Origin: a virus | IMG/VR virus record: IMGVR_UViG_3300032296_000199 | Span: 1 to 53,902 of that record | Length of the DNA: 53,902 nucleotides | Strand: one strand, 5' to 3' | Part shown: positions 10,281 through 37,251 of the stretch, one piece after another | Position numbering within the stretch: the stretch's first letter is position 1 | How the letters are laid out: every line of letters starts with the position of its first letter | Position numbers and translations under genes: made by a program | Notes under the pieces: generated by a model | Seen by the model: only the letters and a program-made list of their open reading frames with translations | What the model was told of the DNA's origin: nothing | The model's database searches: none

Positions 10281-13200
10281 ATGCCTACATATCAAGTTGA
10301 TGTTGGAAACAAAACCTATGAAGTAGATGCGCCGGATTCCAACACTGCTTGGCAGTGGGCTAACTTTACCCATTCAAAAGCACCTAAAGAACCTGTTGCA
10401 TCTAAAGAACGTACTTTTGGTGAAGCCTTTACTGACATAGGTGCGGCAGGTCTTGGCGGTATTGGCTCTCTTGTTCAGTTGCCCGGTCAACTGTATGGCC
10501 TAGCCACTGGAGACTTTTCTAAGACAGGTGCTTTGGGCGCTGGGCAAGAACTTGAAGAATATGCTAAAGGACTCAAGTCCAAAGGCTTGCTTGCCCGTGA
10601 AGCCGCACGCGATGTGGCTATGCAGAACGCTGAAAAACAAGGTCAGTTTCAAGCGTTTAAGACTGCTATTGGTCAGACTGTTTCTGATCCTGCTTTGTTG
10701 TCTACATTCCTTGCAGAACAATTACCACAGATAATCCCTGCCGCTTTAACAGGCGGTGCTACTGCCGCAGCTACATCCGGCAACGTATTGGCAAAAGCAG
10801 CTACTAGACAAATCTCTAAAGAAGCCGCAGAGAAAGTGGCACAGCGCGAGGCTATTCGTGCAGGTACTACTGCCGCAGTTGGTACAGGCGCAGTGCAACA
10901 AGGCGCAGACATTGGCGCTGGCACTTACGATGAAGTGGTCAAAGAACTTGTAAGCAAGGGTGCAACTCCTGAACAAGCCGGACAAGCCGCTATCAATCTG
11001 GCAAGGGCTTCTGGCGTATCGGGCGCGGCTCTGTCTCTTATTGCCAATAGGTATTTACCCGGGGGTCAAGCCTTGGAGCGAGTGTTGGCCGGTGGGACAA
11101 CAGGCAAAGGCATCATCACGGGTGCGGCTACGGGTGCGGTCAAAGAACTGCCAAGCGAGATACTGGAAGAAACAGGCGGCAGATTTACACAGAACCTTGC
11201 CTTGCGCGAAGTCAAACCAGAGCAAAGCCTTACACAAGGACTGGGCGCAACTGCTGGTCAAGCGGCACTTGGTGCAGTGGGTCTGGGCGGTGTAGCTGGA
11301 GCTATTGGTGGACGTGGTGGTGCTACGCCTGAAGTACCTGTTGATCAACAACAAGAACCTGTTGTAACACCTGCGCCCACTGCGGCTCCTGAAGAAGAAA
11401 AAGAACGCACGCTCGAGGAGTTACTTGCCACTGGCAAACGTCCACCTCCTGAATACAAAGCGCCAGAGGGTGTGACTATTACTGCGCCCAAAGGCTCACT
11501 AGATGAGCTTGAGCAGATTATTGCTGCACAGCAGCAAAAGTACGATAACCGTCAAAAAGAAATTGAAGGTAAACAGGCGTTAAATCAAAACCCCAAAAAT
11601 CAAATCAAAGCCAATGAACAACTTGCTGCTGAACTTACATCAATGCGGGAAGCGCTTGCCAAAAGGATTGAGGCTGGAGAAACGTATGTTGCAAAATCTG
11701 ACCAAGGAACAGGTGGAGATGGCTCTGGAGTATCTGTACCACCAAGTAATAATGTACCCCCCGCCGAAGGAGTTGGAGCACCTGAACGAGGCGGAGTGGA
11801 TAGTACTGGACAAGATGCTGGAGGGCTTGATACGGGAGCAGCAGGACAGCAGACTGCAATAACACCACCAGCAGAAACACAAGTTGTAAAACCCACAGGA
11901 GCAGACGTTGGCACTCAAACCACTCAAACCAAGCAAGCAGAAGCGCAAGGACAAAAACCACCCGCAGCCCCCGTTGTAAAGACTGCTGCACAGCAAGACG
12001 AAGACTTGCTTAATAATCTCTTTGGAGATGATGGTCTTCCGTCAACTGGTTCTGCGCGTCGTACCCAAGCACAGATTGCAAAAGATAATCAGATTGAGGC
12101 GCTTGGTAAAAAATACGGATTAGCGCAACGCGATGGTGAGTCACAACAAGAATTTGGTAAACGCTTGCGCAGTGCTGTTGCGTTTGAAAAAGAACGTGAA
12201 GGCAAGCCGCTTGGCGCTATGAGTACGCAGGCAATTGCAGGGCAGGATATTAAAGAAGCGCAAGGGTACTTTCCACCTCAAGAGCAACGTGACTTGTACG
12301 AAGAAACGCGCCAAGAATACAACCAACGTGTTGATGAACAGATCAAAGCAGGTGAGGCAACTGAAGATGACAAACTCCCTGCCTATAAAGAACTGAGTGA
12401 TGATGATCGTCGCGTTTATTTCCGTGACAACATTCAGCAGAACAACCAAGTAGAACACGACAAAGCAGTCAAAGTATTGGCTGAGCATTTGTCTGATAAA
12501 CGTTCCGAAAGCCGTGCCGCGCCAGAGTATCAACGAACTGAAGCAACGGATCAAATTCGTGCGCAGAAAAGTTACGAGCGTGAACGTGGTGGTTTTGGGT
12601 CTAAGACAGGTATGGCGTATACATTCCCCGGATGGAATAGTTTGTCAGACGAAAGCCGTAGACTCTTTGCAAGTCTTAACCAAACCGATACTGTCCTTGA
12701 ACAAGACGTGGCGTTTCGTGCCGTAAAGAAACAAGTTCAAAAAGAAAAGTTAGAAGAACAGTCTCGTGAAAGATTGCAAGAAGCAGAAAGCCGCGCAAAA
12801 CAAGAGATGCTTGCGGCTGCGGAAAGAGCTCGCGCTAGTCAGCCATCAGGCAAAGGAGCCGTACTTCCTAAAAATATTGTAGAAGCCTTATTTAATGGTG
12901 ACATCAAAACTGTACTTAACTATTTATCTTCTGATGAGTCTAAAGGCATAAAGAGTCCAAGCAAAGAACGCAATATATTTACCCGTCAAATTTTTCGGTT
13001 GTTGGCTAGTTCTCTTAATAGCATTGAAAACTTCCGTGTAAATGTTGTGTTTGATGAAAACATGACTTTGGCTAATATTGCCAAGTACGATGCCAACACC
13101 AATACGTTGTATGTAGGCCCCAAAGGACTTGATGAAGCCACAATTCTTCACGAGCTTACTCACGCTGCAACAGTCAAACTTGTCCATCAATTCTTTACGG

Positions 13201-16200
13201 ACAAAACTAAACTGCCTCCAAACGTTGTAAAGGCAATTGAAAACATTCAAACAATTGCATCTGCTGCACAAAAATTATTGGGTAAAAAATACCCCAATGC
13301 GTTTGATAATCTGTATGAGTTTATAGCCTACGCTATGACCGACTTGGATTTCCAAAATGATTTAGCAAGTAAACAAATACCAAGACTTGCTACTGTTACA
13401 GAAAAAAGCGCAGAGCAAGCGCAAGCGGTGCAAGATGAACGCGCATTTAACATAAAGGGATATGACTTTATGTTTGACAACCTGTGGAAATATTTCACAG
13501 GAAACTTGGCATTCATGTATCAATTGTTTACGCCAAAGCCTAAATCTCAAAGGCTTTTAGTTCCTGTTGATTACTACGATGAAGCAAGCAAACGCACTGT
13601 TCGCACTGGTACGTACACCAAAGCGCCTAAAAATGCGCCAGTCAGATTTACTCGACAACGTAGCGTAGGACTTGAAGGTTTATCAGAAGAAGAACGCAAA
13701 GATGCCGTACTAACCCCACTCGTTAGTGAGCTGGTTATGGAGCGCGGTGTCTCCAATTTGAAGAGTCTTATTTTGACGCAGCCCGGCTATAAAGGCAATT
13801 TGCTGCTTGAGGCGGCAGATGCGATTAGCCAGATATTTGAAGCGCCTACAGGTGGTATTGAAAAACTTGCTGGTAAAGAAGCTATTGGTTCAGAGTTATA
13901 TGCTGGGGCAAAAGGTGCGGCTGGTAAACCTATTACGCAAAAAGCGCCAAAGAAAACTACGCAACGTTCGCCTGACGAAATCATTGCAGAGCAAAAACTG
14001 CCTGATGAAAAAGGCACAAGCAAAGTTCGTGACTTTATGACCAGCACTGCTGGTGTGCGTAGACTTGCCACCATCTTTGCAAATAGCCGTTACCCCATTA
14101 AAGTATGGGAAGATGCATTGCAACGCGCAAAGAAAACAATTGATGCTGGCCCTGATCTAAACAACATCTATACACAGATCACATTGTCTGCGGCGCGTGC
14201 TAAAGATTTGTATCTGACGATGGTCAATACACCAGCTACTGAATTGCAGCAAGCTATTGGTGAATACGCAAAAGCCGCCAAGGTTGATTCTAATTTGGCG
14301 CTAAAGCAGTTGCATACATACTTCATGGCGCTGCATGAGCCAGAGCGTCGCGCAATTAAATTCTTGCGCAATGTGCCTTTGAAAAACTCAGATGTGCAAT
14401 TTAACGGGCAAACAATAAATCCTGCTGACTTCCGTCAAGATGTGCTTAATGCAGTTGAGTCTGGTAAGTTGACCAAGAAAGAAGTCAAACGTTTGCGTCA
14501 AGAGTTAGATGCAGTTGTGGCGCAATATAAAGAAGCTTCAGGTTTTAGCCCCGCTGGTTATAAAACTACTGACATGAATGGCTCAGACTACAACGTGATT
14601 GGTAATCTGTATCCTGATGAAGCAAAAGCTATTCGTGACAAGTTTGATGGCAACAAAAAGGCTGAGGCAGTAATTACTGCAATGAAAGCCATGAACGATG
14701 TGACAGCCGAGCTAAACAAGAAGGCTAACTATTGGTCTAAGCCTGTGCAAAGCGTCGTAGATTTCTACGGCTGGGATCATTACATCCCATTCAAGGGTAA
14801 AGAAATATCAGGTAGTCAAGACGGAATGCTTGACTTTGATATTCTTAAAACTGACAAGCGCTTTGCAGAAAAACTGCAAGACTTCCAAAGTGAGTTTGAA
14901 GGCCGTGAATCATGGTCAGACAATTCATTAACGCAGATCATGAGCGATGCTACACGCGCTGCAATGCGTGCTGGGCGCAAAGACTTGACGCTGGCAATTA
15001 AAAATGCAATTGACCAGAAGTTGTTGATGGGTTCAGTCAATGAAGTTAAAGGTTTAAATGGCAAGCCGATTGAGTTTGCTGACCGCAACAAAATTGATTT
15101 GGGTGAGTTGGCTGGTAAAACAACCATCTTCCATTACAACGAGAACGGCAGCATTGATGTGTTGCAGGTGTATAGCGAAGCTGAGCGCAATGCCATCCGT
15201 CGCGCATACCAGCAAACCAATCCTTTGATTGACATGCTCAACACTGTTACTAGCACTGTGGGTCAATTCCATACACGCTATAACGTGGCGTTTGCGCCAA
15301 TGAACTACTTCCGTGATATGTTGACCAATGCATTTACGATTGGTACAGACATGAATGCATCAACTGCTGCGCAATACATTGGCGCTGTTACATCGCAAGT
15401 TGTGAACGGTGGTATGTATAAGACATGGAAGATTGCTAGTCTGTATAACTCTGGCAAGATGGCTGAACTTAATGCGTTTGTTGCTAAAGATAAATCAGGC
15501 TTCTCCCAAGATGTAATGGAGTACATTAAAGAAGGCGGCATGGTGTCCTATCTGCAAGGCTTGTCTGCTAAAGGCACGTTCCAGAATTTGCAAAAAGATC
15601 TAAATTCAAGTAAGCCTAAAAAGGCATTGGCTGCTATGAATGGTTTCTTTGATGTGTATGCCGACATGTTTGAATTGTCTAGCCGTACTGCTGCTTACCG
15701 CATTACCCGCAACAAACTACTACGTGAAGACAAGCTGTCTGATGAAGCCGCTAGAACTCGTGCGGCTGCGTATGTAAAAAACCTTGCAAACTTTGAGCAA
15801 GTTGGTGAGTGGGGACGGGGCGCTGGCGCAATGTTTATGTTCTTTAGACCCGCCGCTACAGGTGCAGTACGCGCTATTGAAACATTAGGGCCAATGATTC
15901 GCAGTACCGACGAAGCAGTCATGGACTTGCCGCCTGAAGTACGCAAGGATGCAAAGGCAGTTGCTGAATTCCGTAAGAATCATGAGAAGCAACGCAAAGC
16001 CGCGCAAGCTATGACATTAAGTCTAGCTGGTTTTGGTGTTGGCATGTACTTGCTGTCTATGGCACTGTCAGACGATGATGATATGGGTCGCAACCGCACT
16101 AAGACTGACGACATTAACCGTTGGGCGCGTTATGCGCGATTCCATATTCCCGGCTTAGAAACTCCAATTCAAATTCCTTGGGGCTTTGGTTTGGGCGCAT

Positions 16201-17027
16201 TTGCGGCTAGTGGCGCACAGATTGCTGCTATGGCTACTGGACAAGCATCTATTAAAGAAGGCTTTAGCAATACATTGTCTGTGATGATGGATTCATTCTT
16301 GCCGTTGCCAGTCTCGCGTATCAACATGTTTGATAACTTCCCCGCATGGTTGATGGACTCTGCGCTGCCATCTGCGGCTCGTCCTCTGTTTGAATGGCAG
16401 ATGAACATCGATGCTTTGGGTCGTGAGATTTACAACAACCGCCAGACGCGCGTGGGTGATGCGTACACAGGTGGCGATAACATTCCTGAGTTGTATAAGT
16501 CAGCCGCCCGTACTCTTGCAGATGTTACAAATGGTGCTATAGACTGGAGTCCTAATACGTTGTACTTCTTTGCCAATAACTATGCTGACGGGCCGATGCG
16601 ACTTGCGCAGACAGGCATGAATCTATCATTGCTTGCGGCTGGAGAAAAAGCGTTTAATCCAAAGACAGATACAATTTTGTTTGATAGTTTCTTTGGGTCT
16701 GCTTCAAACTACGACGCTAAACAATTTTCCGCTATTGAAAAGCAAATCAAAGATATGGAACGTAAACTCAAAATGTTTGAGTCCAATCCAGAACAATATC
16801 AAAAGTATGTTGAAGCTAACCCAATGGACGAGTATCTTGTCAAGATGTACAACGAAGGTGTCAACGGTCGCTTGAAAGAGTATCGGGAAGAAGCCAACGC
16901 TATCCGTAAGATGCCTGATCTTTCTCCCAAAGACCGTAACGATGCGCTAAAGAACATTGTGCAGATGCAGAACTTTGAGAAGCGTCACATGATCGATGCG
17001 TTTGAGATGTTTGACATCAAGCCCTAA
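10281..17027 (+). CDS. Giant polyvalent protein with HExxH metallopeptidase and LPD38-like region; candidate ejection protein
   Basis: 2248 residues. The N-terminus (YQVDVGNKTYEVDAPD) resembles short N-terminal modules of other large phage proteins. Residues about 50-370 carry Gly/Ala-rich helices. A central charged region follows. ILHELTHAAT places H957, E958 and H961, with a plausible third zinc ligand E1013 in NLYEFIAYAM, giving a gluzincin-type site. The region from about 1690 to 2110, including a hydrophobic helix near 1911 and PLPVSRINMFDNFPAWLMD, resembles large polyvalent protein-associated domain 38. Such proteins are thought to be injected with phage or plasmid DNA. Peptidase activity and injection are inferences. 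It is the last + strand gene of the late operon; its stop overlaps the convergent gene by 4 bases. Confidence 0.65.
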   Translation: MPTYQVDVGNKTYEVDAPDSNTAWQWANFTHSKAPKEPVASKERTFGEAFTDIGAAGLGGIGSLVQLPGQLYGLATGDFSKTGALGAGQELEEYAKGLKSKGLLAREAARDVAMQNAEKQGQFQAFKTAIGQTVSDPALLSTFLAEQLPQIIPAALTGGATAAATSGNVLAKAATRQISKEAAEKVAQREAIRAGTTAAVGTGAVQQGADIGAGTYDEVVKELVSKGATPEQAGQAAINLARASGVSGAALSLIANRYLPGGQALERVLAGGTTGKGIITGAATGAVKELPSEILEETGGRFTQNLALREVKPEQSLTQGLGATAGQAALGAVGLGGVAGAIGGRGGATPEVPVDQQQEPVVTPAPTAAPEEEKERTLEELLATGKRPPPEYKAPEGVTITAPKGSLDELEQIIAAQQQKYDNRQKEIEGKQALNQNPKNQIKANEQLAAELTSMREALAKRIEAGETYVAKSDQGTGGDGSGVSVPPSNNVPPAEGVGAPERGGVDSTGQDAGGLDTGAAGQQTAITPPAETQVVKPTGADVGTQTTQTKQAEAQGQKPPAAPVVKTAAQQDEDLLNNLFGDDGLPSTGSARRTQAQIAKDNQIEALGKKYGLAQRDGESQQEFGKRLRSAVAFEKEREGKPLGAMSTQAIAGQDIKEAQGYFPPQEQRDLYEETRQEYNQRVDEQIKAGEATEDDKLPAYKELSDDDRRVYFRDNIQQNNQVEHDKAVKVLAEHLSDKRSESRAAPEYQRTEATDQIRAQKSYERERGGFGSKTGMAYTFPGWNSLSDESRRLFASLNQTDTVLEQDVAFRAVKKQVQKEKLEEQSRERLQEAESRAKQEMLAAAERARASQPSGKGAVLPKNIVEALFNGDIKTVLNYLSSDESKGIKSPSKERNIFTRQIFRLLASSLNSIENFRVNVVFDENMTLANIAKYDANTNTLYVGPKGLDEATILHELTHAATVKLVHQFFTDKTKLPPNVVKAIENIQTIASAAQKLLGKKYPNAFDNLYEFIAYAMTDLDFQNDLASKQIPRLATVTEKSAEQAQAVQDERAFNIKGYDFMFDNLWKYFTGNLAFMYQLFTPKPKSQRLLVPVDYYDEASKRTVRTGTYTKAPKNAPVRFTRQRSVGLEGLSEEERKDAVLTPLVSELVMERGVSNLKSLILTQPGYKGNLLLEAADAISQIFEAPTGGIEKLAGKEAIGSELYAGAKGAAGKPITQKAPKKTTQRSPDEIIAEQKLPDEKGTSKVRDFMTSTAGVRRLATIFANSRYPIKVWEDALQRAKKTIDAGPDLNNIYTQITLSAARAKDLYLTMVNTPATELQQAIGEYAKAAKVDSNLALKQLHTYFMALHEPERRAIKFLRNVPLKNSDVQFNGQTINPADFRQDVLNAVESGKLTKKEVKRLRQELDAVVAQYKEASGFSPAGYKTTDMNGSDYNVIGNLYPDEAKAIRDKFDGNKKAEAVITAMKAMNDVTAELNKKANYWSKPVQSVVDFYGWDHYIPFKGKEISGSQDGMLDFDILKTDKRFAEKLQDFQSEFEGRESWSDNSLTQIMSDATRAAMRAGRKDLTLAIKNAIDQKLLMGSVNEVKGLNGKPIEFADRNKIDLGELAGKTTIFHYNENGSIDVLQVYSEAERNAIRRAYQQTNPLIDMLNTVTSTVGQFHTRYNVAFAPMNYFRDMLTNAFTIGTDMNASTAAQYIGAVTSQVVNGGMYKTWKIASLYNSGKMAELNAFVAKDKSGFSQDVMEYIKEGGMVSYLQGLSAKGTFQNLQKDLNSSKPKKALAAMNGFFDVYADMFELSSRTAAYRITRNKLLREDKLSDEAARTRAAAYVKNLANFEQVGEWGRGAGAMFMFFRPAATGAVRAIETLGPMIRSTDEAVMDLPPEVRKDAKAVAEFRKNHEKQRKAAQAMTLSLAGFGVGMYLLSMALSDDDDMGRNRTKTDDINRWARYARFHIPGLETPIQIPWGFGLGAFAASGAQIAAMATGQASIKEGFSNTLSVMMDSFLPLPVSRINMFDNFPAWLMDSALPSAARPLFEWQMNIDALGREIYNNRQTRVGDAYTGGDNIPELYKSAARTLADVTNGAIDWSPNTLYFFANNYADGPMRLAQTGMNLSLLAAGEKAFNPKTDTILFDSFFGSASNYDAKQFSAIEKQIKDMERKLKMFESNPEQYQKYVEANPMDEYLVKMYNEGVNGRLKEYREEANAIRKMPDLSPKDRNDALKNIVQMQNFEKRHMIDAFEMFDIKP

Positions 17028-28154: not shown

Positions 28155-28332
28155 GTTTCAGGTTCCTTGATGTTGTTCGGTTAGTCCAACACATAGCACA
28201 CACCCACTTGGATGGCGACATGTGTATGCCACCTTCAGGGGGCTTTGCTACTTCACACTTGCCACATAACTTGTAGCCGTGTAATGGTTGCTTACTACCT
28301 ATATCTAGTTGTTGTTTAACAAATCCGTTCAT
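28141..28332 (-). CDS. Small zinc-finger-like protein (63 residues)
   Basis: Starts at an ATG with AAGGAAA upstream. Two CxxC pairs (LCGKCE and VCAMCW) about 20 residues apart could hold one zinc ion, as in small phage zinc ribbons. It overlaps both neighbours by a few bases, so translation is coupled. The role is unknown. Confidence 0.6.
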   Translation of the reverse strand: MNGFVKQQLDIGSKQPLHGYKLCGKCEVAKPPEGGIHMSPSKWVCAMCWTNRTTSRNLKHAKT

Positions 28333-29273
28333 GGATTTCCTTTTCTTCTTGCGTGGGGCGCGATTGTTTTACTGCGGTAGTCAATGCCTGAGAAGTTTGC
28401 ATACTCAGCCAATGTCCTCGCCTTGCCTAGACCATAGATGCCAAGGTCAGCGTTGTGCTGTAGGAGTGCGGTCATCCTCGCCTTAGACTTGTTGTCTAGT
28501 TCCCACCATCGTTGGTTTCTTTCCTTGTCGGAGTTGGGAGACCAATGAACCTCTCGGTGTGTTGTAGCTACATCTCCTGTGCTATACAAGTGATAGATAG
28601 GCACATCCGTGGTGTGATAAATATCCCATCCATGTGTCCACGCACGCACCGAGAGAGTCTGCTCCTCGCCCTCAAAGTACAAGTGCGGGTCGTAAGGCAC
28701 TTCGTATACAAACCGCCCATGAGTGAAGATAAAACCTGCCGCCATGTGAAAGCCTTTCAGGGGTACATCACTTGTGCGAGATGAAGCGGTAAAAAGAATG
28801 ATCGTGTTCTCTTCTTTAAACTCAAAGTCATCGTTGACATAGTTATACAGAATCCCATCGGTAGTTCTCTCAGGTACAGGAACATCGTCAACCATCTTGA
28901 ATGGGTGTGGGTAATTGGATATAACAAACTTAGGCGACATCTGTGAGCAACGTGCTGCCGCTATGAGTAGTGTGTCATCCCACCCCTGATCAAATACCAT
29001 GTGAGAGTCGATCTGCATAAACCACGCCTCACCTGAGTAGAGTGACATGGCAAGGGAACGCGCCCAACAAGCACCTCTCGTATCGCGTACATCTATCCCA
29101 ACATACCTTACTTGGGATTTGATATCGTCAAACTTGAGTCGCCTTTCCGCAAAGTTTTGTTCTACTATTCCAAACCTCAACTCACTTGGGCGGCTAGCCT
29201 TTGCAAGCATGTCTCGTATGGTTTGTTCAAGTAGTCTGTCACAGTAGGATGCAACGCTAACAAAAATGGTCAT
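28329..29273 (-). CDS. GT-A glycosyltransferase, GlcNAc-transferase-like
   Basis: 314 residues from the ATG at 29273, preceded by AAGGGGA; a longer frame to 29315 overlaps the upstream gene and lacks this. MTIFVSVASYCDRLLEQTIRD is the usual N-terminus of the GlcNAc-type (PF11397-like) GT-A fold. FMQIDSHMVFDQGWDD near 87 supplies the metal-binding D-x-H, and FEGEEQTLSVRAWTHGWD a later conserved acidic segment. Substrate unknown: host surface sugar, phage DNA or virion protein are all possible. Starts in an ATGA overlap with the upstream small gene. Confidence 0.8.
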   Translation of the reverse strand: MTIFVSVASYCDRLLEQTIRDMLAKASRPSELRFGIVEQNFAERRLKFDDIKSQVRYVGIDVRDTRGACWARSLAMSLYSGEAWFMQIDSHMVFDQGWDDTLLIAAARCSQMSPKFVISNYPHPFKMVDDVPVPERTTDGILYNYVNDDFEFKEENTIILFTASSRTSDVPLKGFHMAAGFIFTHGRFVYEVPYDPHLYFEGEEQTLSVRAWTHGWDIYHTTDVPIYHLYSTGDVATTHREVHWSPNSDKERNQRWWELDNKSKARMTALLQHNADLGIYGLGKARTLAEYANFSGIDYRSKTIAPHARRKGNP

Positions 29274-29515
29274 GCTTGTCCCCTTGCTCGGATGGCTTTG
29301 GCAATATCTTGCCAATTTGCATATTGAGGGATGCGATGCGGTGTTGGTTCAGTCCCGCAAGCCACAACCACTTCATATTCTCCAATAGGCGTTTCAGCAA
29401 CTTTTGCACACGCCTCACGCTCTGCTGCTTCAACAAGGGCGGCAAAATGCTCGATGTCTCCATGCAAGGTCAGCCCATTGCCTTCAATCAGTTTAATAAT
29501 TTCATCTCTGTTCAT
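29270..29515 (-). CDS. Small phage protein ending AIRARGQA (81 residues)
   Basis: Contains AAEREACAKVAE and ends AIRARGQA, a helix pair very common in small phage accessory proteins. Its last 30 bases are identical to those of the 76-residue gene at 29820-30050, and both overlap the next start codon by ATGA. Function unknown. Confidence 0.6.
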   Translation of the reverse strand: MNRDEIIKLIEGNGLTLHGDIEHFAALVEAAEREACAKVAETPIGEYEVVVACGTEPTPHRIPQYANWQDIAKAIRARGQA

Positions 29516-30856: not shown

Positions 30857-31020
30857 TGACGTTTCTCACTTGGGGGTGTCCACCCAAACTTACGCCATGT
30901 ATCTTGTACATTGGTTAGATTGGCGGGAACGTAAATAAATCTTGGGTCTAGCAAGCTTGGGCGCACAGGCTTTTGTAGTTTCTGCGCGGGTATAGAGACC
31001 AGTTTCTTGTTGGTGTTCAT
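30853..31020 (-). CDS. Small phage protein with RFIYVPA and FGWTPPSE motifs (55 residues)
   Basis: The start overlaps the VRR-NUC stop (ATGA). DPRFIYVPANLTNVQDTWRK then FGWTPPSEKR is a pattern I recall from many phages of proteobacteria, always small and uncharacterised. The tight coupling with VRR-NUC is notable. Confidence 0.65.
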   Translation of the reverse strand: MNTNKKLVSIPAQKLQKPVRPSLLDPRFIYVPANLTNVQDTWRKFGWTPPSEKRQ

Positions 31021-31313
31021 TTGATAAATCCATCCATTAAAAGTTGTAAATGATGTACGTTGTTTTCATCGATGATCAATGCTAAGCCTCCCGCGATCTC
31101 GATAGAATTTAAATTATGAAGTTGCAAAGCCGTTGGCTTACCACCATTGGCTTTGCATTCGATGCCTACAAAGTGTCCCTTGTAACAACATAGAATGTCA
31201 GGGATGCCTGAATGACCAAACCCCGAGGCGACAGGCATAGCGTGGTATGCGCCCATCTTCTTGAGCGTTTCAATTACCTTCTTCTTTACCTTCTTCTCGG
31301 GCGTATCAGCCAT
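31017..31313 (-). CDS. VRR-NUC domain nuclease
   Basis: 98 residues, the usual size of stand-alone phage VRR-NUC proteins. SGIPDILCCYKGHFVGIECK supplies the PD...ExK catalytic core, followed by a Gln-containing helix (PTALQLHNLNSI). It probably cuts branched or flapped DNA in replication or recombination. Lies next to small accessory genes downstream of the MoxR/VWA module. Confidence 0.85.
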   Translation of the reverse strand: MADTPEKKVKKKVIETLKKMGAYHAMPVASGFGHSGIPDILCCYKGHFVGIECKANGGKPTALQLHNLNSIEIAGGLALIIDENNVHHLQLLMDGFIK

Positions 31314-31318
31314 ATCAG

Positions 31319-31669
31319 TTACTCCTTATGTCCATATAGACTCTTGACAAATTGATTGTCCAAGACAAGTATGTATAGGTTCTTGGTTACTTGCCAACCT
31401 ATATCATCTAGTCTTAGGTCTTGATGATTGATATACACAGTCGTATTATCAGACTCCCACTCCTCCAGTATATTAGGAGGGAATGCGTGAATCATTGATA
31501 TTAAAGCTTTGATCTGATCAGGCAAGGTATCCTCATCGAATATTCTTACATGGTTCTTCGCTACCACAACTGCGTATTCATTGTCTCTGACCCACATAGC
31601 TACCCTACTGCTTCCGCTAAGAGTTCTATGAGCGACAGGTGTTAGTTCACTATTGATATCATGGAGCAT
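31319..31669 (-). CDS. Unknown protein (116 residues)
   Basis: Overlaps the 309-residue gene by 11 bases. Sequence is mixed alpha/beta (SSRVAMWVRDNEYAVVVAKN, VRIFDEDTLPDQIKALISMI) without recognised motif. Its position after the 309- and 320-residue genes suggests it belongs with that block. Confidence 0.5.
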   Translation of the reverse strand: MLHDINSELTPVAHRTLSGSSRVAMWVRDNEYAVVVAKNHVRIFDEDTLPDQIKALISMIHAFPPNILEEWESDNTTVYINHQDLRLDDIGWQVTKNLYILVLDNQFVKSLYGHKE

Positions 31670-32588
31670 GCTTGGGCAACAGTACTACAAGTTTGTTGTT
31701 TGAATGCCCTACTGCAAAGTCCATGTCGTCAAAGTAATGGTCTGTGTATTTAACACCAATCTCATTGTCTTTATCGAAATATCTATTCTGACTTTCCATG
31801 TATGAGCGAATCATTGCGACAGTCGGTGCATGCTCAGTTTCTTTCAGACTAGCATACCGTGTCAGGGGTGACTGAAACTGATACCCAAGCTTGCCAGTAT
31901 TTGAATCCATTCCGGTCACAAAGTCTGCCACATAGTACCCCCTTACAGAGTCGCTTTTGTATCTATCGTTTTCTATGAATATCATAGTACATCCAAGCTT
32001 GAAACGATCTGCCGTTGCTTGACTGCCTTTGACAGATTCAGAAGCTTTCATGTAGTTATCATATATCTTCTGATAGTCAGGGATGTGCTGATGTACAGAC
32101 ATGTCATCAATACCCAATATAGCCTTGAGTGCATCCAATGCCTGAGTCCCACTAATACCAATGTTCGGTGCTCTCTCGTTTGTTATCTCAGCTATTGCAT
32201 GATAGATAGCACTATTGAACATCTCCATTGCCTTGGCTTCTGTGGGTTGTTCTTTGTTCTTCTTGATAGTGCGAATCAGATTGGGTAGCTTTTCAGAATC
32301 CCTTGCGCCATTACCTGACCATTTGCTAGACCTATCTTTGCTGATGATGCTTGGCATGTCGGCAACATAGACAGGCTTGCCATTACTTGTATTCACACTC
32401 AGTTCGCCAATCCTCATGCCGTTGGGCATCTCAAGCGTGATACCTCTGTTGTGAAAGTTATCTCCATCGAAACTAACTCGCGTGTTGAATTCATGGCAGA
32501 ACTCCCGCGCAAATTTCTCCAAGTGTAAGTTGTTAGACAGAAGTCTATGGGCTTTCCACGCATCGCCATATACAGATACTATTTCCAT
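31659..32588 (-). CDS. Unknown protein of the MoxR/VWA neighbourhood (309 residues)
   Basis: Begins after AGGAGAAAG. Mixed alpha/beta with no recognised catalytic motif. Segments such as GITLEMPNGMRIGELSVN and YYVADFVTGMDSNTGKLGYQ suggest beta strands, and the C-terminus has VKYTDHYFDDMDFAVGHSN. It is co-oriented with, and immediately downstream of, the 320-residue and VWA genes. Could be an associated substrate or virion or host-takeover factor; this is only inference. Confidence 0.55.
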   Translation of the reverse strand: MEIVSVYGDAWKAHRLLSNNLHLEKFAREFCHEFNTRVSFDGDNFHNRGITLEMPNGMRIGELSVNTSNGKPVYVADMPSIISKDRSSKWSGNGARDSEKLPNLIRTIKKNKEQPTEAKAMEMFNSAIYHAIAEITNERAPNIGISGTQALDALKAILGIDDMSVHQHIPDYQKIYDNYMKASESVKGSQATADRFKLGCTMIFIENDRYKSDSVRGYYVADFVTGMDSNTGKLGYQFQSPLTRYASLKETEHAPTVAMIRSYMESQNRYFDKDNEIGVKYTDHYFDDMDFAVGHSNNKLVVLLPKHAP

Positions 32589-32604: not shown

Positions 32605-33561
32605 TTAAATACGAATGAATCGGTTGTCACATTGATCGATGATGATGTAGCCCCATTTGGATGTTGGAAACTTCTCACCAATAGGTAACTCTTTTAGGAT
32701 TGCGGCATTGTCACAACCCACTAATACAATATCTCTCATATCCTCCTTGATTCTTCTGTCGAGTGTTAATTTATAGTGTCCATCGAACGACCTTATGATC
32801 TGTCGCATTGCATTCTCGGTGTCGTCAGATTTAAATATGGTATTCAATAAATGACGATGACTGTGATAGTGATGACCCTCACCCGCGATAGAGAATACGA
32901 TTGCCGCATCAACAAACTTTTTCTCTCGCACCAATTTAACAAACAGTCCTTCATCAAGTGCGTCAAGACAACCCTCTTGCTCATACAAGTCTTTAAACAC
33001 CTCCAGTATGCCCATCGGGGTCATTGGCTCAATGAACTTCATCGCCATCGTTTGAAACTCTGCAAACTCTTTGAGTGTCTCGTTGGCTTTCTTCTTGTCA
33101 ATGTCTCTCTTAAAAAACTTATATGGCGTAACTGCCTCTCCTGTTTTCATGTCGATACGCAATCCCTTGAATACTGGATGCATCTTTGTATTGGTGTAAT
33201 ACACCACACCACCACGCCCACCATCCTGATGGATGTACCCACGAATCGCTTGTGACATGAACATACAGTCACCCTGTCCTGAAAAGTTAACTACCTCGAA
33301 TGAGTTGTCAGGATGTATCGTCAGCAAGTGTCGCTTGTAATTCCATGTATCCAAAGATGTGTCCTTCTCTACAATCTTCTTGGACATATCAGGATGGGTA
33401 TAGTAAATGTCAATGCGATCACCCCTGAGTCTGAAGTGCCTGTCAGAGTATCGCCTTGCGCCTAAGTTGTATGCGCCATTTGAATCCCTGTATGGCTTTG
33501 CCGTCTTTGCGTACTCAATGAGTGCGTTGTAACTAACATTTTGTATATCGTAGAATGCCAT
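32605..33561 (-). CDS. Unknown protein of the MoxR/VWA neighbourhood (318 residues)
   Basis: ATG at 33561 follows GGAG; upstream TTG at 33567 is in frame but would precede this signal. Contains FSGQGDCMFMSQAIRGY, HPVFKGLRIDMKTGEAV and GEGHHYHSHRHLLNTIF. The His cluster in the last might bind metal. No named family recognised. Starts four bases from the VWA gene's stop, so the two are very likely translated together. Confidence 0.55.
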   Translation of the reverse strand: MAFYDIQNVSYNALIEYAKTAKPYRDSNGAYNLGARRYSDRHFRLRGDRIDIYYTHPDMSKKIVEKDTSLDTWNYKRHLLTIHPDNSFEVVNFSGQGDCMFMSQAIRGYIHQDGGRGGVVYYTNTKMHPVFKGLRIDMKTGEAVTPYKFFKRDIDKKKANETLKEFAEFQTMAMKFIEPMTPMGILEVFKDLYEQEGCLDALDEGLFVKLVREKKFVDAAIVFSIAGEGHHYHSHRHLLNTIFKSDDTENAMRQIIRSFDGHYKLTLDRRIKEDMRDIVLVGCDNAAILKELPIGEKFPTSKWGYIIIDQCDNRFIRI

Positions 33562-33563
33562 TA

Positions 33564-34766
33564 TCAATTCTCCATAAATACTTTTTTACCTGATGGAGGA
33601 GTCCAATTCTTGTTCTCCGTTACCATCCACAAAGTTGGTGATGAGATATTCCACACCACATCGCTCTCAAGATAACCATCGGTGAACACCAATACGCATT
33701 CAGCATTGATCTTCTTCTTATTTATGTATTCAGCCACAGATGAAACTCTAGTTCCCCCGCCACCCAAAGGCTTCAACATCGAACCGATTTGGTCATAGTT
33801 ATCCGTAAAGAGTTGTTCACCATGTACCTTGGTGTCCCACCACAAAATGCGCACCGCATCAGGCGAGACTGCCTCACAGATAGAGACCAGTTCTGAGGCG
33901 AACTCATCAAGTTGTTGTTGTCCAATAGAACCTGAAGTGTCGATTGCCACCACGACCTCACCAATAGTTTCATTCTCTACTGTTGGTAGATAGATATCGT
34001 TGGAGATGAGTCGCCTATTGAACTTGCGCCATGTGTACTCATCCTTGCCTTTGCATGATGAAGTTACAAAGTCAGCCAACTCTTTCTTCCAATCAATGAC
34101 AGGGTTAAGTAAGTCGCTGATAGATCGGGGCAAGTCAATACCCAAGCGACCCGCTAAGAGTGCGCCTTCTCGTATTGCTCTGTCGATCTTGCCATCCATC
34201 TCCTTGGCTTCCTCCTGAGTCATTTGCTTGCCAAAGTCATGCTTGTCGAATTCGTATTCACCACCCCCTGAACCACTACCCTTCTCGCCTTCCTTGTCAG
34301 GCTTACCACCACCTCCGCCACCACCCTTCTTGCTCTTGAGTAATTTGTACACCTCACGCATGCTCATGTTGTGATACTGCGGGTCATACAGTCCACCCTT
34401 GGGTAGTTGAACTAACTCGGGATACTTCTTGCTGATCTCCGTGATCATGTCATTGACCACATAGTCAGCCGCCTTGTTAGCCTTCTCACCATCCTCCTTG
34501 AACATGTCTGCTCCGTGCAGATGGTGTCGCAATCCAATGTGCAAGTTCTCATGCAAGATAAGCCCATTCACCTCGGGTTGTGTTGGACAGATAGTCTGTA
34601 AGAATGTTCTGCCATACTTCTTGTTGATGCCATCCGTATAGGCGGTGATCGCCTCATCCACCACCTCAGTCGAACCCATCATCATCACGCCACCCCACAA
34701 TGCAGTCTCGGGGTGTTTCATCAGGGCGATATGCCCCTTCTTGATTCGTTGCTCTTCAGTAATCAT
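33564..34766 (-). CDS. VWA-domain protein with N-terminal HExxH metallopeptidase-like region
   Basis: 400 residues. LILHENLHIGLRHH near residue 72 is an HExxH zinc motif; residues about 145-170 are a Gly/Lys linker; EVVVAIDTSGSIG near 272 is the MIDAS motif of a von Willebrand factor A domain, completed by GGGGTRVSS and FTDGYLES. The layout matches the VWA-like/metallopeptidase-like pairs (DUF2201 style) that work with MoxR AAA+ ATPases. Coupled to the upstream microprotein by an overlapping TAATG. Likely acts with the MoxR gene product as a chaperone or remodeller. Confidence 0.8.
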   Translation of the reverse strand: MITEEQRIKKGHIALMKHPETALWGGVMMMGSTEVVDEAITAYTDGINKKYGRTFLQTICPTQPEVNGLILHENLHIGLRHHLHGADMFKEDGEKANKAADYVVNDMITEISKKYPELVQLPKGGLYDPQYHNMSMREVYKLLKSKKGGGGGGGKPDKEGEKGSGSGGGEYEFDKHDFGKQMTQEEAKEMDGKIDRAIREGALLAGRLGIDLPRSISDLLNPVIDWKKELADFVTSSCKGKDEYTWRKFNRRLISNDIYLPTVENETIGEVVVAIDTSGSIGQQQLDEFASELVSICEAVSPDAVRILWWDTKVHGEQLFTDNYDQIGSMLKPLGGGGTRVSSVAEYINKKKINAECVLVFTDGYLESDVVWNISSPTLWMVTENKNWTPPSGKKVFMEN

Positions 34767-34855
34767 TATGGTCTCCAGTAATAAACGTCTAACAGTAAAA
34801 CGATGAATGCCAACAGCAGTAGCACTCGCTCAAACTTCTCGCCTCTTGTAAGCAT
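34766..34855 (-). CDS. Tiny single-span membrane protein (29 residues)
   Basis: A short ORF with GAGGT five bases upstream of the ATG, fitting exactly between the MoxR and VWA genes. MLTRGEKFERVLLLLAFIVL then a Leu/Asp turn and YYWRP: one predicted transmembrane helix flanked by charged residues. Its stop overlaps the VWA start. The LLxAF...YWR pattern recurs in the 59-residue microprotein upstream of MoxR. Confidence 0.6.
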   Translation of the reverse strand: MLTRGEKFERVLLLLAFIVLLLDVYYWRP

Positions 34856-34863
34856 GTGCTACC

Positions 34864-35934
34864 TCACAGGAGTTGGTGATTGTCAGTCGCCCACTTGTTG
34901 ATCTCTTGGTTGTATCGCGCCAACTTGGGCTTGGCTCGCATCATCATGGTGAAAAAGATCGATTGGATTTCTTCTTGGGGAATACGATTCACAAAGTCCA
35001 TGTACTTGTTCAGGGTATCCTGAGTATCTAACTTGTCGATTGCCTCGAACAACATCATGACCAATGCGCTTACATTGTCAGGAACGCTGATAGTCTTGGG
35101 ACTCTTGATGATGTCCTCATACTTAGTCAGGCGACCCTCAAGTGAGATGAATGCCGCGATAGACTTAGCGAACGCCTCACCCGCAGTACCCGCCAACGCA
35201 ACAGTCAATGTATTCTCTGAGTATTCGCTACGCTTCTCGACGATTGGAGAACACTTAGCCAATGAGCGAGGAGACACAAAGGACTTGCTCGTTGATGATG
35301 GTTTAAAGATATATGGGTTGTCTTGCTGATCGGGATCCAAGTAAGACTTGAACGCCTTGGTATTCATAGCCGCCCATGCCCGAATGGGTCGCGCAATGCC
35401 GTTCGCACTCGCCCATGTATTCCACTCATCATGGTTAGGCTTACGCATACTGACCAAGCACACACGATTCCCAACGTGTGCCAACATGCCATCACCCACA
35501 CCATCGCTTGCATTGTTACTTGTTGCAAACACAATGCTCCCTGCGGGCAGTTGCTCATCACCCACACTACGCTCTAGCATAAGTCTTGTATAGATGATCT
35601 GCATCAGCTTGGGTGACTTCATGAACTCATCGAGCATGATCACCTTCTTCTTGCCATTGCCCATCTTGAACAACGATGAGACATAGTACTCAAGTGTCTT
35701 GCTCGTATGGTTCGGGATAGATGCCGCAACATCCATCATATCTTTCACAGGGCAATCCACATAGATGTAGTCGTACTCATCCTCACCCATCTCTGCTTTA
35801 AGCATTGTTAAGATGGTTGATTTGCCAACCCCAGGCTCAGAGACAACAACGACTGTGTTTGTTGCACCGATAGACTTGATGAGTTGTTTGGTCTCATCGA
35901 TAGATGTGGTCAATGAAAAGTTTACTTTCGACAT
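34864..35934 (-). CDS. MoxR-like AAA+ ATPase
   Basis: 356 residues from ATG at 35934 (GGAG upstream). VVVSEPGVGKSTILTMLKAE near 32-45 is Walker A, KKVIMLDEFMKSP near 98 Walker B, VFATSNNASDG a sensor-1 Asn segment. Order and length fit the MoxR/CobS group of AAA+ ATPases that pair with VWA proteins. Probably remodels protein complexes together with the downstream VWA partner. Confidence 0.85.
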   Translation of the reverse strand: MSKVNFSLTTSIDETKQLIKSIGATNTVVVVSEPGVGKSTILTMLKAEMGEDEYDYIYVDCPVKDMMDVAASIPNHTSKTLEYYVSSLFKMGNGKKKVIMLDEFMKSPKLMQIIYTRLMLERSVGDEQLPAGSIVFATSNNASDGVGDGMLAHVGNRVCLVSMRKPNHDEWNTWASANGIARPIRAWAAMNTKAFKSYLDPDQQDNPYIFKPSSTSKSFVSPRSLAKCSPIVEKRSEYSENTLTVALAGTAGEAFAKSIAAFISLEGRLTKYEDIIKSPKTISVPDNVSALVMMLFEAIDKLDTQDTLNKYMDFVNRIPQEEIQSIFFTMMMRAKPKLARYNQEINKWATDNHQLL

Positions 35935-35961
35935 GGCTTTCTCCAATTAATGTTTCAGGGA

Positions 35962-36141
35962 TTACTGACTTACTTTTTTGATCTCAAAGGTTTTTGATTC
36001 CTCATCGACCTCGATGTAGGCTTCTTTCAAACCTACGGCTACCAATGCACAAGAGATGTAGATGCGCTTGCGCTCTGATCTCCAGTACATGACTGTCATG
36101 ATTGCAAAAGCAATCAACAATACAATTTCTAAATCTGTCAT
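35962..36141 (-). CDS. Small single-span membrane protein (59 residues)
   Basis: Starts in an ATGA overlap with the DUF3150-like gene. MTDLEIVLLIAFAIMTVMYW gives one N-terminal transmembrane helix followed by basic RSERKR, then a soluble tail (KEAYIEVDEESKTFEIKKV). Sits directly upstream of MoxR. The helix pattern resembles the 29-residue microprotein on the other side of MoxR. Confidence 0.6.
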   Translation of the reverse strand: MTDLEIVLLIAFAIMTVMYWRSERKRIYISCALVAVGLKEAYIEVDEESKTFEIKKVSQ

Positions 36142-37046
36142 AAGAATGCTTTCAATGGTTTAAAGTTGGACAACAAGTCATCCACGCTCTCTTTCACTTG
36201 GCTTCGTGCATACGAACTCTCACGCAACTCCTCGCATGTCACGCCATCCAATGCGTTCTCTAGTCGAGCTCTAGCATCCTCCAATGCGGTGTTATTTGTT
36301 AAGTTAAAGGACTTCAGGGTCTCACACAACTCCTTGGCTTGTGTGATGGTTGTGTCGTAAATCTTCTTGCGTTTGACCTTGCCATCCTCGTTGGCGGTAT
36401 TCTCTGTGCATGCATTGCTGATGCGCTCAGCGAACAGGACAAGTCTCTCGCTCGCATCTTGCATGACTGTATCGATGATCTCTCCCACTTGCTTCTCGTA
36501 TCCGCGCATCAAGTCTTCAGCGATAGCCTCGCTGATGTTAGACCTGAAGTCATTCGCAGGGACTTTTGTCACGAACAACTTGATCTTGAATCGGCTTCGC
36601 AAATCTTGTGGTTCAGGGTACTCTGAACGATTAAACATGTCGCCTTGCTTGAATGCCGCATCGCTGACCATCGTGGGGTATGCCGCAATGAACTTATCAA
36701 ACAAGTCATCAAAGGCTTTCTCATGCCCCTCGTATTCTTTCTTGAACTTCTCAAGGTTGATCATGGGCAACAAACGCATTGACCCCGCCCAATCGTATGT
36801 GCAACGCTGAAGCCAGTTATAGACGGTTTGCCGATAGTTAAGGAGGGCTTTGTGGTCGGGCGAGTTAGCGAGCAAGTTCTTGGTGAACTTGCCTGCCTCA
36901 GAGGATGCATTCTTAGCAGATGTAACCTCGTCAGAGATAGCGCGATCTTGCTTGGTCGCAGTCCACACGTTCACGTCTACTGAGACAATAAGTGCAGATG
37001 TTGCAAGTGAGATCACTTGGTTCGGTTGTTGTAATTCAAAGTTCAT
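36138..37046 (-). CDS. DUF3150-like protein of the MoxR/VWA module
   Basis: 302 residues, ATG preceded by GGGAG. Mostly helical (KFKKEYEGHEKAFDDLFDKF, GYEKQVGEIIDTVMQDASER) with an N-terminal VSVDVNVWTATKQD segment. DUF3150-type proteins accompany CobS/CobT-like AAA+ and VWA genes in phages and plasmids; the assignment rests on this gene order and general composition, not on a firm motif. Confidence 0.45.
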   Translation of the reverse strand: MNFELQQPNQVISLATSALIVSVDVNVWTATKQDRAISDEVTSAKNASSEAGKFTKNLLANSPDHKALLNYRQTVYNWLQRCTYDWAGSMRLLPMINLEKFKKEYEGHEKAFDDLFDKFIAAYPTMVSDAAFKQGDMFNRSEYPEPQDLRSRFKIKLFVTKVPANDFRSNISEAIAEDLMRGYEKQVGEIIDTVMQDASERLVLFAERISNACTENTANEDGKVKRKKIYDTTITQAKELCETLKSFNLTNNTALEDARARLENALDGVTCEELRESSYARSQVKESVDDLLSNFKPLKAFL

Positions 37047-37047
37047 T

Positions 37048-37251
37048 TCAACGACTCCCTTTATGAGATGAGTTAAGGTTAAGTAACAAGGAACGATCAG
37101 TCACAACTATGTAGTTGGACTTGGGCATCGGCACGATTGTGTGTTTCACAGAACGCGCGTGTAACTCGCCACATGGCATACACAATGTATAACCATGTAG
37201 TTGGCGAGCAATAGAAAATGGTTCACCACAGACTGAACAACTAGGTGTCAC
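37048..37251 (-). CDS. Small zinc-ribbon protein (67 residues)
   Basis: SCSVCGEPFSIARQ and LCMPCGELHAR give two CxxC pairs about 18 residues apart, a typical zinc ribbon. It overlaps the gene upstream by four bases and ends one base before the DUF3150-like gene. May be a small DNA- or RNA-binding adaptor. Confidence 0.6.
   Translation of the reverse strand: MTPSCSVCGEPFSIARQLHGYTLCMPCGELHARSVKHTIVPMPKSNYIVVTDRSLLLNLNSSHKGSR

What the first reader, a model, noticed from the sequence alone, without database searches (positions are those of the whole stretch)
33561..37046. MoxR AAA+ / VWA-metallopeptidase module with a DUF3150-like gene and two microproteins
Seen: a MoxR-type AAA+ ATPase, a VWA protein carrying both an HExxH and a MIDAS motif, a helical 302-residue gene and two tiny membrane proteins in one tightly coupled - strand block. 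Known: MoxR-VWA pairs assemble or remodel protein complexes and CobS/CobT-like pairs occur in phages. Inferred: this phage carries its own remodelling system, perhaps with the 318- and 309-residue unknown proteins as partners or substrates. Its target is unknown.
Basis: partly seen in the sequence, partly recalled or inferred. Interest (0 to 1): 0.75.

Follow-up and report, generated by a model that had tools for sequence, protein, structure and literature searches.

The report
Phage MoxR–VWA–DUF3150 protein-remodelling operon
An uncultured phage carries a conserved operon for an ATP-driven protein-remodelling and protein-cutting machine (a MoxR-like AAA+ motor, a VWA/metallopeptidase and a DUF3150-like helical protein, with tiny membrane proteins); the pair was known from phages, but the three-gene set also sits on conjugative plasmids and appears undescribed as a unit.

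Summary
VWA (33564-34766, minus strand) matches PF13203 and PF09967 above cut-off and has intact HExxH and MIDAS motifs. The AAA+ protein (34864-35934) is homologous to N4 gp24 (phrog_1297). The 302-aa protein is a distant DUF3150 relative: 13 of 30 family members touch PF11348 below its cut-off, Foldseek's best viral hit is a DUF3150 protein, and hhalign against plasmid/cyanophage relatives gives 99.9%. Both microproteins look real: 47 of 54 MoxR-VWA gaps in relatives carry a single-TM ORF, against 8 of 53 on the opposite strand.

Gene order is conserved (MoxR follows g302 in 66/66 IMG/VR loci, VWA in 56/56). The 318- and 309-aa genes follow in most loci (at least 46/57 and 53/53) but are faster evolving and group-specific.

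A MoxR-metallopeptidase/VWA pair is already known from phages (N4 core genes gp24/gp25; Iyer et al. 2021 proposed virion assembly). What I add is the third component: MoxR-DUF3150-VWA recurs on about 40 proteobacterial plasmids (six read at locus level, three of them beside type IV secretion genes) and in a Synechococcus/Planktothrix phage. Likely function: ATP-dependent remodelling with proteolysis of an unknown target. Verdict: new variant of a known kind.

The parts
36138..37046 (-). g302: helical DUF3150-related protein, proposed adaptor/third component
   Evidence: 13/30 family members hit PF11348 (best 1.1e-4, below cut-off); Foldseek BFVD best hit DUF3150 protein 6e-14; hhalign to plasmid/cyanophage relatives 99.9%, 4e-37
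35962..36141 (-). g59: single-TM microprotein
   Evidence: hydropathy 2.18 over 17 residues, overlaps g302 by 4 nt; homologues in 22 relatives, in L059 placed between MoxR and VWA instead
34864..35934 (-). MoxR-like AAA+ ATPase (phrog_1297, N4 gp24 family); ATG at 35934, alternative TTG at 35946
   Evidence: 2e-50; Walker B DE, sensor-1 N and SPRSL sensor 2 in 66/66; variant Walker A SEPGxGK[ST]; hhalign 99.3% to pSYSA 'MoxR family ATPase'
34766..34855 (-). g29: 29-aa single-TM microprotein
   Evidence: TM ORF in 47/54 MoxR-VWA gaps of relatives against 8/53 on the reverse strand
33564..34766 (-). metallopeptidase-VWA protein (DUF2201_N + DUF2201; phrog_1314; N4 gp25 family)
   Evidence: PF13203 8e-24, PF09967 5e-19; HExxH and MIDAS 60/60; third zinc-ligand candidate D101 invariant
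32605..33561 (-). g318: group-specific protein of unknown fold, co-conserved
   Evidence: AlphaFold pLDDT 90, pTM 0.80; no PDB match at E<=0.001; BFVD matches only to uncharacterised phage proteins; in at least 46/57 loci
31659..32588 (-). g309: group-specific protein, co-conserved
   Evidence: 53/53 loci by iterated HMM; dN/dS 0.16-0.22
31319..31669 (-). g116: conserved downstream gene, unknown
   Evidence: 53 of 80 loci in the same order
31017..31313 (-). g98: small nuclease-like protein (part of phrog_93 endonuclease profile), end of the conserved run
   Evidence: phrog_93 1.9e-16; 53 of 80 loci
37048..37251 (-). g67: small protein with two CxxC pairs, directly upstream in most relatives
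   Evidence: 70 of 80 loci

Best explanation
The operon encodes an ATP-driven protein-remodelling and processing machine. A MoxR-like AAA+ motor (expected to be a hexamer) is engaged by the MIDAS site of the VWA protein, whose N-terminal zinc metallopeptidase domain cuts the remodelled target. The helical DUF3150-like protein is the third core subunit, most likely the adaptor that brings the substrate, and the single-TM microproteins hold or regulate the machine at the inner membrane. It lies with the replication (early/middle) genes, so the target is more likely a host or phage complex altered during takeover or replication than a late virion part. Shown: domains, motifs, conserved operon, recurrence of the triad. 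Inferred: hexamer, binding, adaptor role, membrane anchoring, proteolysis, timing, target.
For: Domains and motifs. Order in 66/66 and 56/56 relatives. The triad recurs in a different order and with very divergent sequence on plasmids and in cyanophage MinM2, which argues for functional coupling of the three genes. Strong purifying selection (dN/dS 0.02-0.12). Membrane microprotein in most gaps; similar small TM ORFs beside the pair in N4-like SABI, Thermus phage phiFa and Bacillus phage G. The operon lies in the minus-strand block with primase, helicase, exonuclease and DNA polymerase, not in the plus-strand structural block; N4 gp24/gp25 are middle genes (PMC4193335).
Against: No interaction, ATPase or protease assay exists here. 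Two plasmid VWA proteins (L101, L103) have lost HExxH but keep MIDAS and context, so proteolysis is not essential everywhere. The MoxR-like protein has no Pfam hit above cut-off and a variant Walker A. Schitoviridae, S-TIM5 and pSYSA have the pair without a recognisable DUF3150, so the third gene is not obligatory. TM microproteins were not found in the plasmid versions.
Confidence: 0.6

Rival explanations
1. Virion-assembly chaperone: the MoxR/VWA-metallopeptidase pair matures or processes structural proteins, as proposed for jumbo-phage group 2.2.
For: Iyer et al. 2021 propose this for the same pair in jumbo phages, by analogy with the archaeal two-tailed virus (PMC7824862). In S-TIM5 and Erwinia phage SNUABM_47 the pair lies among structural genes. 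In roseophages a second structural module lies near gp24/gp25 (PMC4193335).
Against: Here and in N4-like phages it lies in the replication/middle block; the same triad on plasmids has no virion to build.
Confidence: 0.2
2. Assembly or regulation of a DNA-transfer or entry machine at the membrane: the shared role in phages and conjugative plasmids is remodelling an envelope complex during or just after DNA entry.
For: Followed by VirB11/VirB2/VirB3/VirB4-type genes on Burkholderia, Robbsia and two Paraburkholderia plasmids; TM microproteins in the phages.
Against: On Cupriavidus, Variovorax and Rhodovastum plasmids no transfer gene is adjacent; plasmid versions lack the microproteins.
Confidence: 0.12
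3. Counter-defence or rival-exclusion module: the machine disables host antiphage systems, with fast-evolving g318 and g309 as adaptable recognition parts.
For: g318/g309 are mostly 18-37% identical where the core keeps about 44-79% within the group; the triad is carried by both phages and plasmids.
Against: No PADLOC model fits (only weak AAA hits); g318/g309 dN/dS 0.11-0.22 shows constraint, not positive selection; present throughout the phage group, unlike typical accessory anti-defence genes.
Confidence: 0.08

Closest known systems
N4 gp24/gp25 pair of Schitoviridae (phrog_1297 / phrog_1314)
   Same: Same two protein families, both core genes, middle-gene block; VWA tree groups the window clade with Schitoviridae (96/98).
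   Different: No DUF3150-like gene recognised in SABI or LUZ7; no g318/g309.
MoxR-metallopeptidase/vWA pair of group 2.2 jumbo phages (Iyer et al. 2021, PMC7824862)
   Same: Same domain architecture: MoxR AAA+ plus vWA fused to an N-terminal metallopeptidase.
   Different: Described as a two-gene virion-assembly chaperone; the passages read name no third component.
MoxR-DUF3150-VWA triad on Burkholderiaceae/Comamonadaceae/Acetobacteraceae plasmids (found here)
   Same: All three genes, adjacent and co-directional; DUF3150-like homology 99.9% by hhalign.
   Different: Order MoxR-DUF3150-VWA rather than DUF3150-MoxR-VWA; no TM microproteins; often beside type IV secretion genes; HExxH lost in two of the six plasmid VWA proteins compared.
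vWA-MoxR ternary conflict systems (Kaur et al. 2020, PMC7159879)
   Same: Three-component logic: MoxR + vWA + a third dedicated protein.
   Different: Third component there is VMAP, FtsH-linked or similar; DUF2201, DUF3150 and CobT are not mentioned in that paper.
RavA-ViaA, CbbQ-CbbO, CoxD-CoxE
   Same: Work-alike: MoxR AAA+ with a VWA cofactor remodels a protein complex (established knowledge).
   Different: No metallopeptidase domain and no DUF3150 (own knowledge); cellular targets known there.

Membership tests
DUF2201 metallopeptidase-VWA (N4 gp25, phrog_1314) | PF13203 and PF09967 above gathering cut-off in one protein | tested here: met
   85.1 and 69 bits against 23.2 and 26.4; phrog_1314 2.9e-80
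DUF2201 metallopeptidase-VWA (N4 gp25, phrog_1314) | HExxH zinc site and MIDAS (DxSxS, T, D) | tested here: met
   60/60 in the phage group
MoxR AAA+ (N4 gp24, phrog_1297) | Homology over full length to known MoxR-type phage ATPases | tested here: met
   phrog_1297 residues 11-360; hhalign 99.3% and 99.0% to annotated MoxR ATPases
MoxR AAA+ (N4 gp24, phrog_1297) | Pfam AAA model above cut-off and canonical Walker A | tested here: inconclusive
   AAA_5 E 0.05, AAA 0.0028, both below cut-off; Walker A is SEPGxGK[ST], first Gly replaced
MoxR AAA+ (N4 gp24, phrog_1297) | Hexamer, ATPase activity, binding to VWA MIDAS | not testable with these tools
   needs biochemistry or co-folding
DUF3150 (PF11348) | Pfam gathering score | tested here: not met
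   13/30 members hit, best 1.1e-4; no match over cut-off in the searches that report it; so called DUF3150-related, not a member
DUF3150 (PF11348) | Common ancestry by profile-profile and fold | tested here: met
   MinM2 and Cupriavidus proteins in that comparison are annotated DUF3150
CobS/CobT cobaltochelatase | CobT/CobS models | tested here: not met
   no CobT or CobS model at E<=1
vWA-MoxR ternary conflict systems (VMAP etc.) | VMAP or other described third component | tested here: not met
   no such domain in any operon protein
Known antiphage defence systems (PADLOC) | System-specific core gene | tested here: not met
   only weak hits, E>=7.6e-5, to the AAA+ protein and 0.0018 to g98

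The most novel reading that the evidence does not exclude
DUF3150 is the dedicated substrate adaptor of a mobile-element-specific, membrane-held MoxR/VWA metalloprotease machine that phages and conjugative plasmids use for the same purpose on entering a new cell, namely remodelling or cutting one shared host target.
Probability: 0.15. Interest if true: 0.8.

Novelty: new variant of a known kind. Interest (0 to 1): 0.5.

Why it matters
N4 gp24/gp25 have been core genes without a demonstrated function in a large phage family for over a decade. Finding the same pair with a fixed third partner on plasmids as well as phages narrows the role: it is unlikely to be only virion assembly, and a plasmid-borne version offers a system on which the mechanism and target can be tested. 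It also gives a genomic context to DUF3150, a family for which the open-access library held no paper.

Tried and rejected
CobS/CobT assignment (no model hit). DUF3150 in the window by hmmsearch alone: no hit, so homology had to come from the family, fold and profile comparisons. PDB sequence search: A1 and A2 nothing, A3 only weak Midasin/Hsp104. g318 against PDB folds: nothing. MinM2 genes downstream of VWA as g318/g309 equivalents: rejected. g318 and g309 as duplicates of each other: rejected. Positive selection on g318/g309: rejected, dN/dS 0.11-0.22. Single origin of the triad: not resolved; the VWA tree needs two changes, the MoxR tree one with weak support 79/66, with long branches. PADLOC defence: none. 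PF11348 search of 18 phage and IMG/VR records: only 2 records, below cut-off. One genome-contig scan gave a single contig in an actinobacterial MAG, possibly a mis-binned phage. Promoter-like sites in the region were no more numerous than in shuffles.

Full report
Setting. The window is a 53.9-kb uncultured virus record from IMG/VR. Replication genes (primase/helicase, helicase, exonuclease, DNA polymerase) fill a minus-strand block; terminase, portal and head genes are on the plus strand. The finding lies in the minus-strand block. A strong terminator-like hairpin with a T run at 39140-39111 follows the 201-aa gene, so the run from about 38.3 kb down to 31.0 kb is probably transcribed from a promoter of its own (inference).

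Observation. The five genes are there. VWA is PF13203+PF09967 above cut-off, with HExxH and MIDAS invariant in 60 complete relatives and an invariant aspartate that could be the third zinc ligand. The AAA+ protein belongs to phrog_1297 and aligns over most of its length to annotated MoxR ATPases, but has diverged: no Pfam model passes its cut-off, Walker A is SEPGxGK[ST] in the clade, and its branch in the tree is very long.

The 302-aa protein. No convincing direct Pfam or PHROG hit. As a family, 13 of 30 members touch DUF3150 (best 1.1e-4), more than any other model. The AlphaFold model (pLDDT 78, pTM 0.52; two helices of over 40 residues) finds a DUF3150 protein first in BFVD at 6e-14; the TM-scores are only about 0.4, so the match rests on combined fold and sequence signal rather than on a clean superposition. 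Profile comparison with plasmid and cyanophage relatives, two of which carry a DUF3150 annotation, gives 99.9%, E 4e-37 over 281 columns. I therefore call it DUF3150-related; it does not pass the Pfam cut-off.

Conservation. Eighty IMG/VR loci from one scan (162 found) keep the order g302 - AAA+ - VWA: 66/66 and 56/56 where the contig is long enough. An iterated HMM search finds g318 downstream in at least 46/57 and g309 in 53/53. Between AAA+ and VWA, 47/54 gaps of at least 60 nt hold a single-TM micro-ORF, against 8/53 on the opposite strand; the g59 type sits before AAA+ in the window and after it in L059. Small TM ORFs also flank the pair in N4-like SABI, Thermus phage phiFa and phage G, though not in LUZ7 or on plasmids.

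The triad elsewhere. tblastn with the plasmid DUF3150-like protein gives 41 plasmid records (Burkholderia, Paraburkholderia, Cupriavidus, Caballeronia, Variovorax, Rhodovastum and others). Six of these were read at locus level and carry MoxR, DUF3150-like and VWA in a row: Robbsia, Cupriavidus, two Paraburkholderia, Variovorax, Rhodovastum. Three of those six (Robbsia and both Paraburkholderia) lie beside VirB-type genes; the B. cenocepacia plasmid pBcp895-1 does too, but an IS21 element sits where the DUF3150 gene would be. In the other records the adjacency of the DUF3150-like and VWA genes shows in the coordinates of the two searches. Synechococcus phage MinM2 has MoxR - small - DUF3150 - three small - VWA. 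Schitoviridae, cyanophage S-TIM5 and plasmid pSYSA have the pair without it. Trees cannot decide whether the triad formed once. Two plasmid VWA proteins lost HExxH but kept MIDAS, so the remodelling role may be separable from proteolysis.

g318 and g309. Outside the closest relatives they are only 18-37% identical to the window's copies, where the core genes keep about 44-79%, yet dN/dS is 0.11-0.22. g318 has a confident model without a PDB counterpart. They are absent from the triads outside this phage group, so they are not core parts; group-specific partners, substrates, or neighbours by habit all remain possible.

Mechanism. By analogy with RavA-ViaA and other MoxR-VWA pairs (established knowledge; PMC7159879 reviews them), the VWA MIDAS should dock on the AAA+ ring, which remodels a client; the fused metallopeptidase may then cut it. 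A dedicated helical third protein that travels with both is most simply an adaptor. Membrane microproteins suggest an inner-membrane location. All of this paragraph is inference.

Known and new. Known: the pair as core genes of N4-like phages (PMC4193335) and as a proposed virion-assembly chaperone with peptidase in jumbo phages (PMC7824862). Not found in the literature searched: DUF3150 as third component (no paper in the library contains the word DUF3150; that library lacks most subscription journals), the plasmid version, or the microproteins. Hence a new variant of a known kind.

Noticed in passing
33564-34766 and phage records of phrog_1314: PHROG 1314 is labelled 'HNH endonuclease', but the members examined are metallopeptidase-VWA proteins (PF13203+PF09967); the label appears on many phage records (e.g. 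NC_048654, NC_055784).
   Followed up: partly
L082:5818-6777 (Tunturiibacter phage Tunturi_3 gp96): A DUF3150-related protein (hhalign 96.5%) annotated 'HNH endonuclease', seven genes downstream of a different AAA ATPase; no VWA neighbour annotated in the stretch shown.
   Followed up: partly
L096 (B. cenocepacia plasmid pBcp895-1): An IS21 element lies between MoxR and VWA where the DUF3150-like gene would be.
   Followed up: no
L099 / OQ594354, OL906435, PP438419: Three phage records under different host names (Synechococcus, Planktothrix, Planktothricoides) have identical length (65014) and identical tblastn match: apparently one genome.
   Followed up: no
10281-17027: 2248-aa plus-strand ORF with an LPD38 polyvalent-protein domain (PF18857, 5e-19), possibly an injected virion protein.
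   Followed up: no
37048-37251: 67-aa protein with two CxxC pairs (zinc-ribbon-like) directly upstream of g302, kept in 70 of 80 relatives.
   Followed up: partly
28329-29315: Glycosyltransferase-like gene (phrog_24687, 6e-42) inside the replication block.
   Followed up: no
34864-35934: The clade of MoxR-like proteins has Walker A SEPGxGK[ST], Ser replacing the first Gly.
   Followed up: partly
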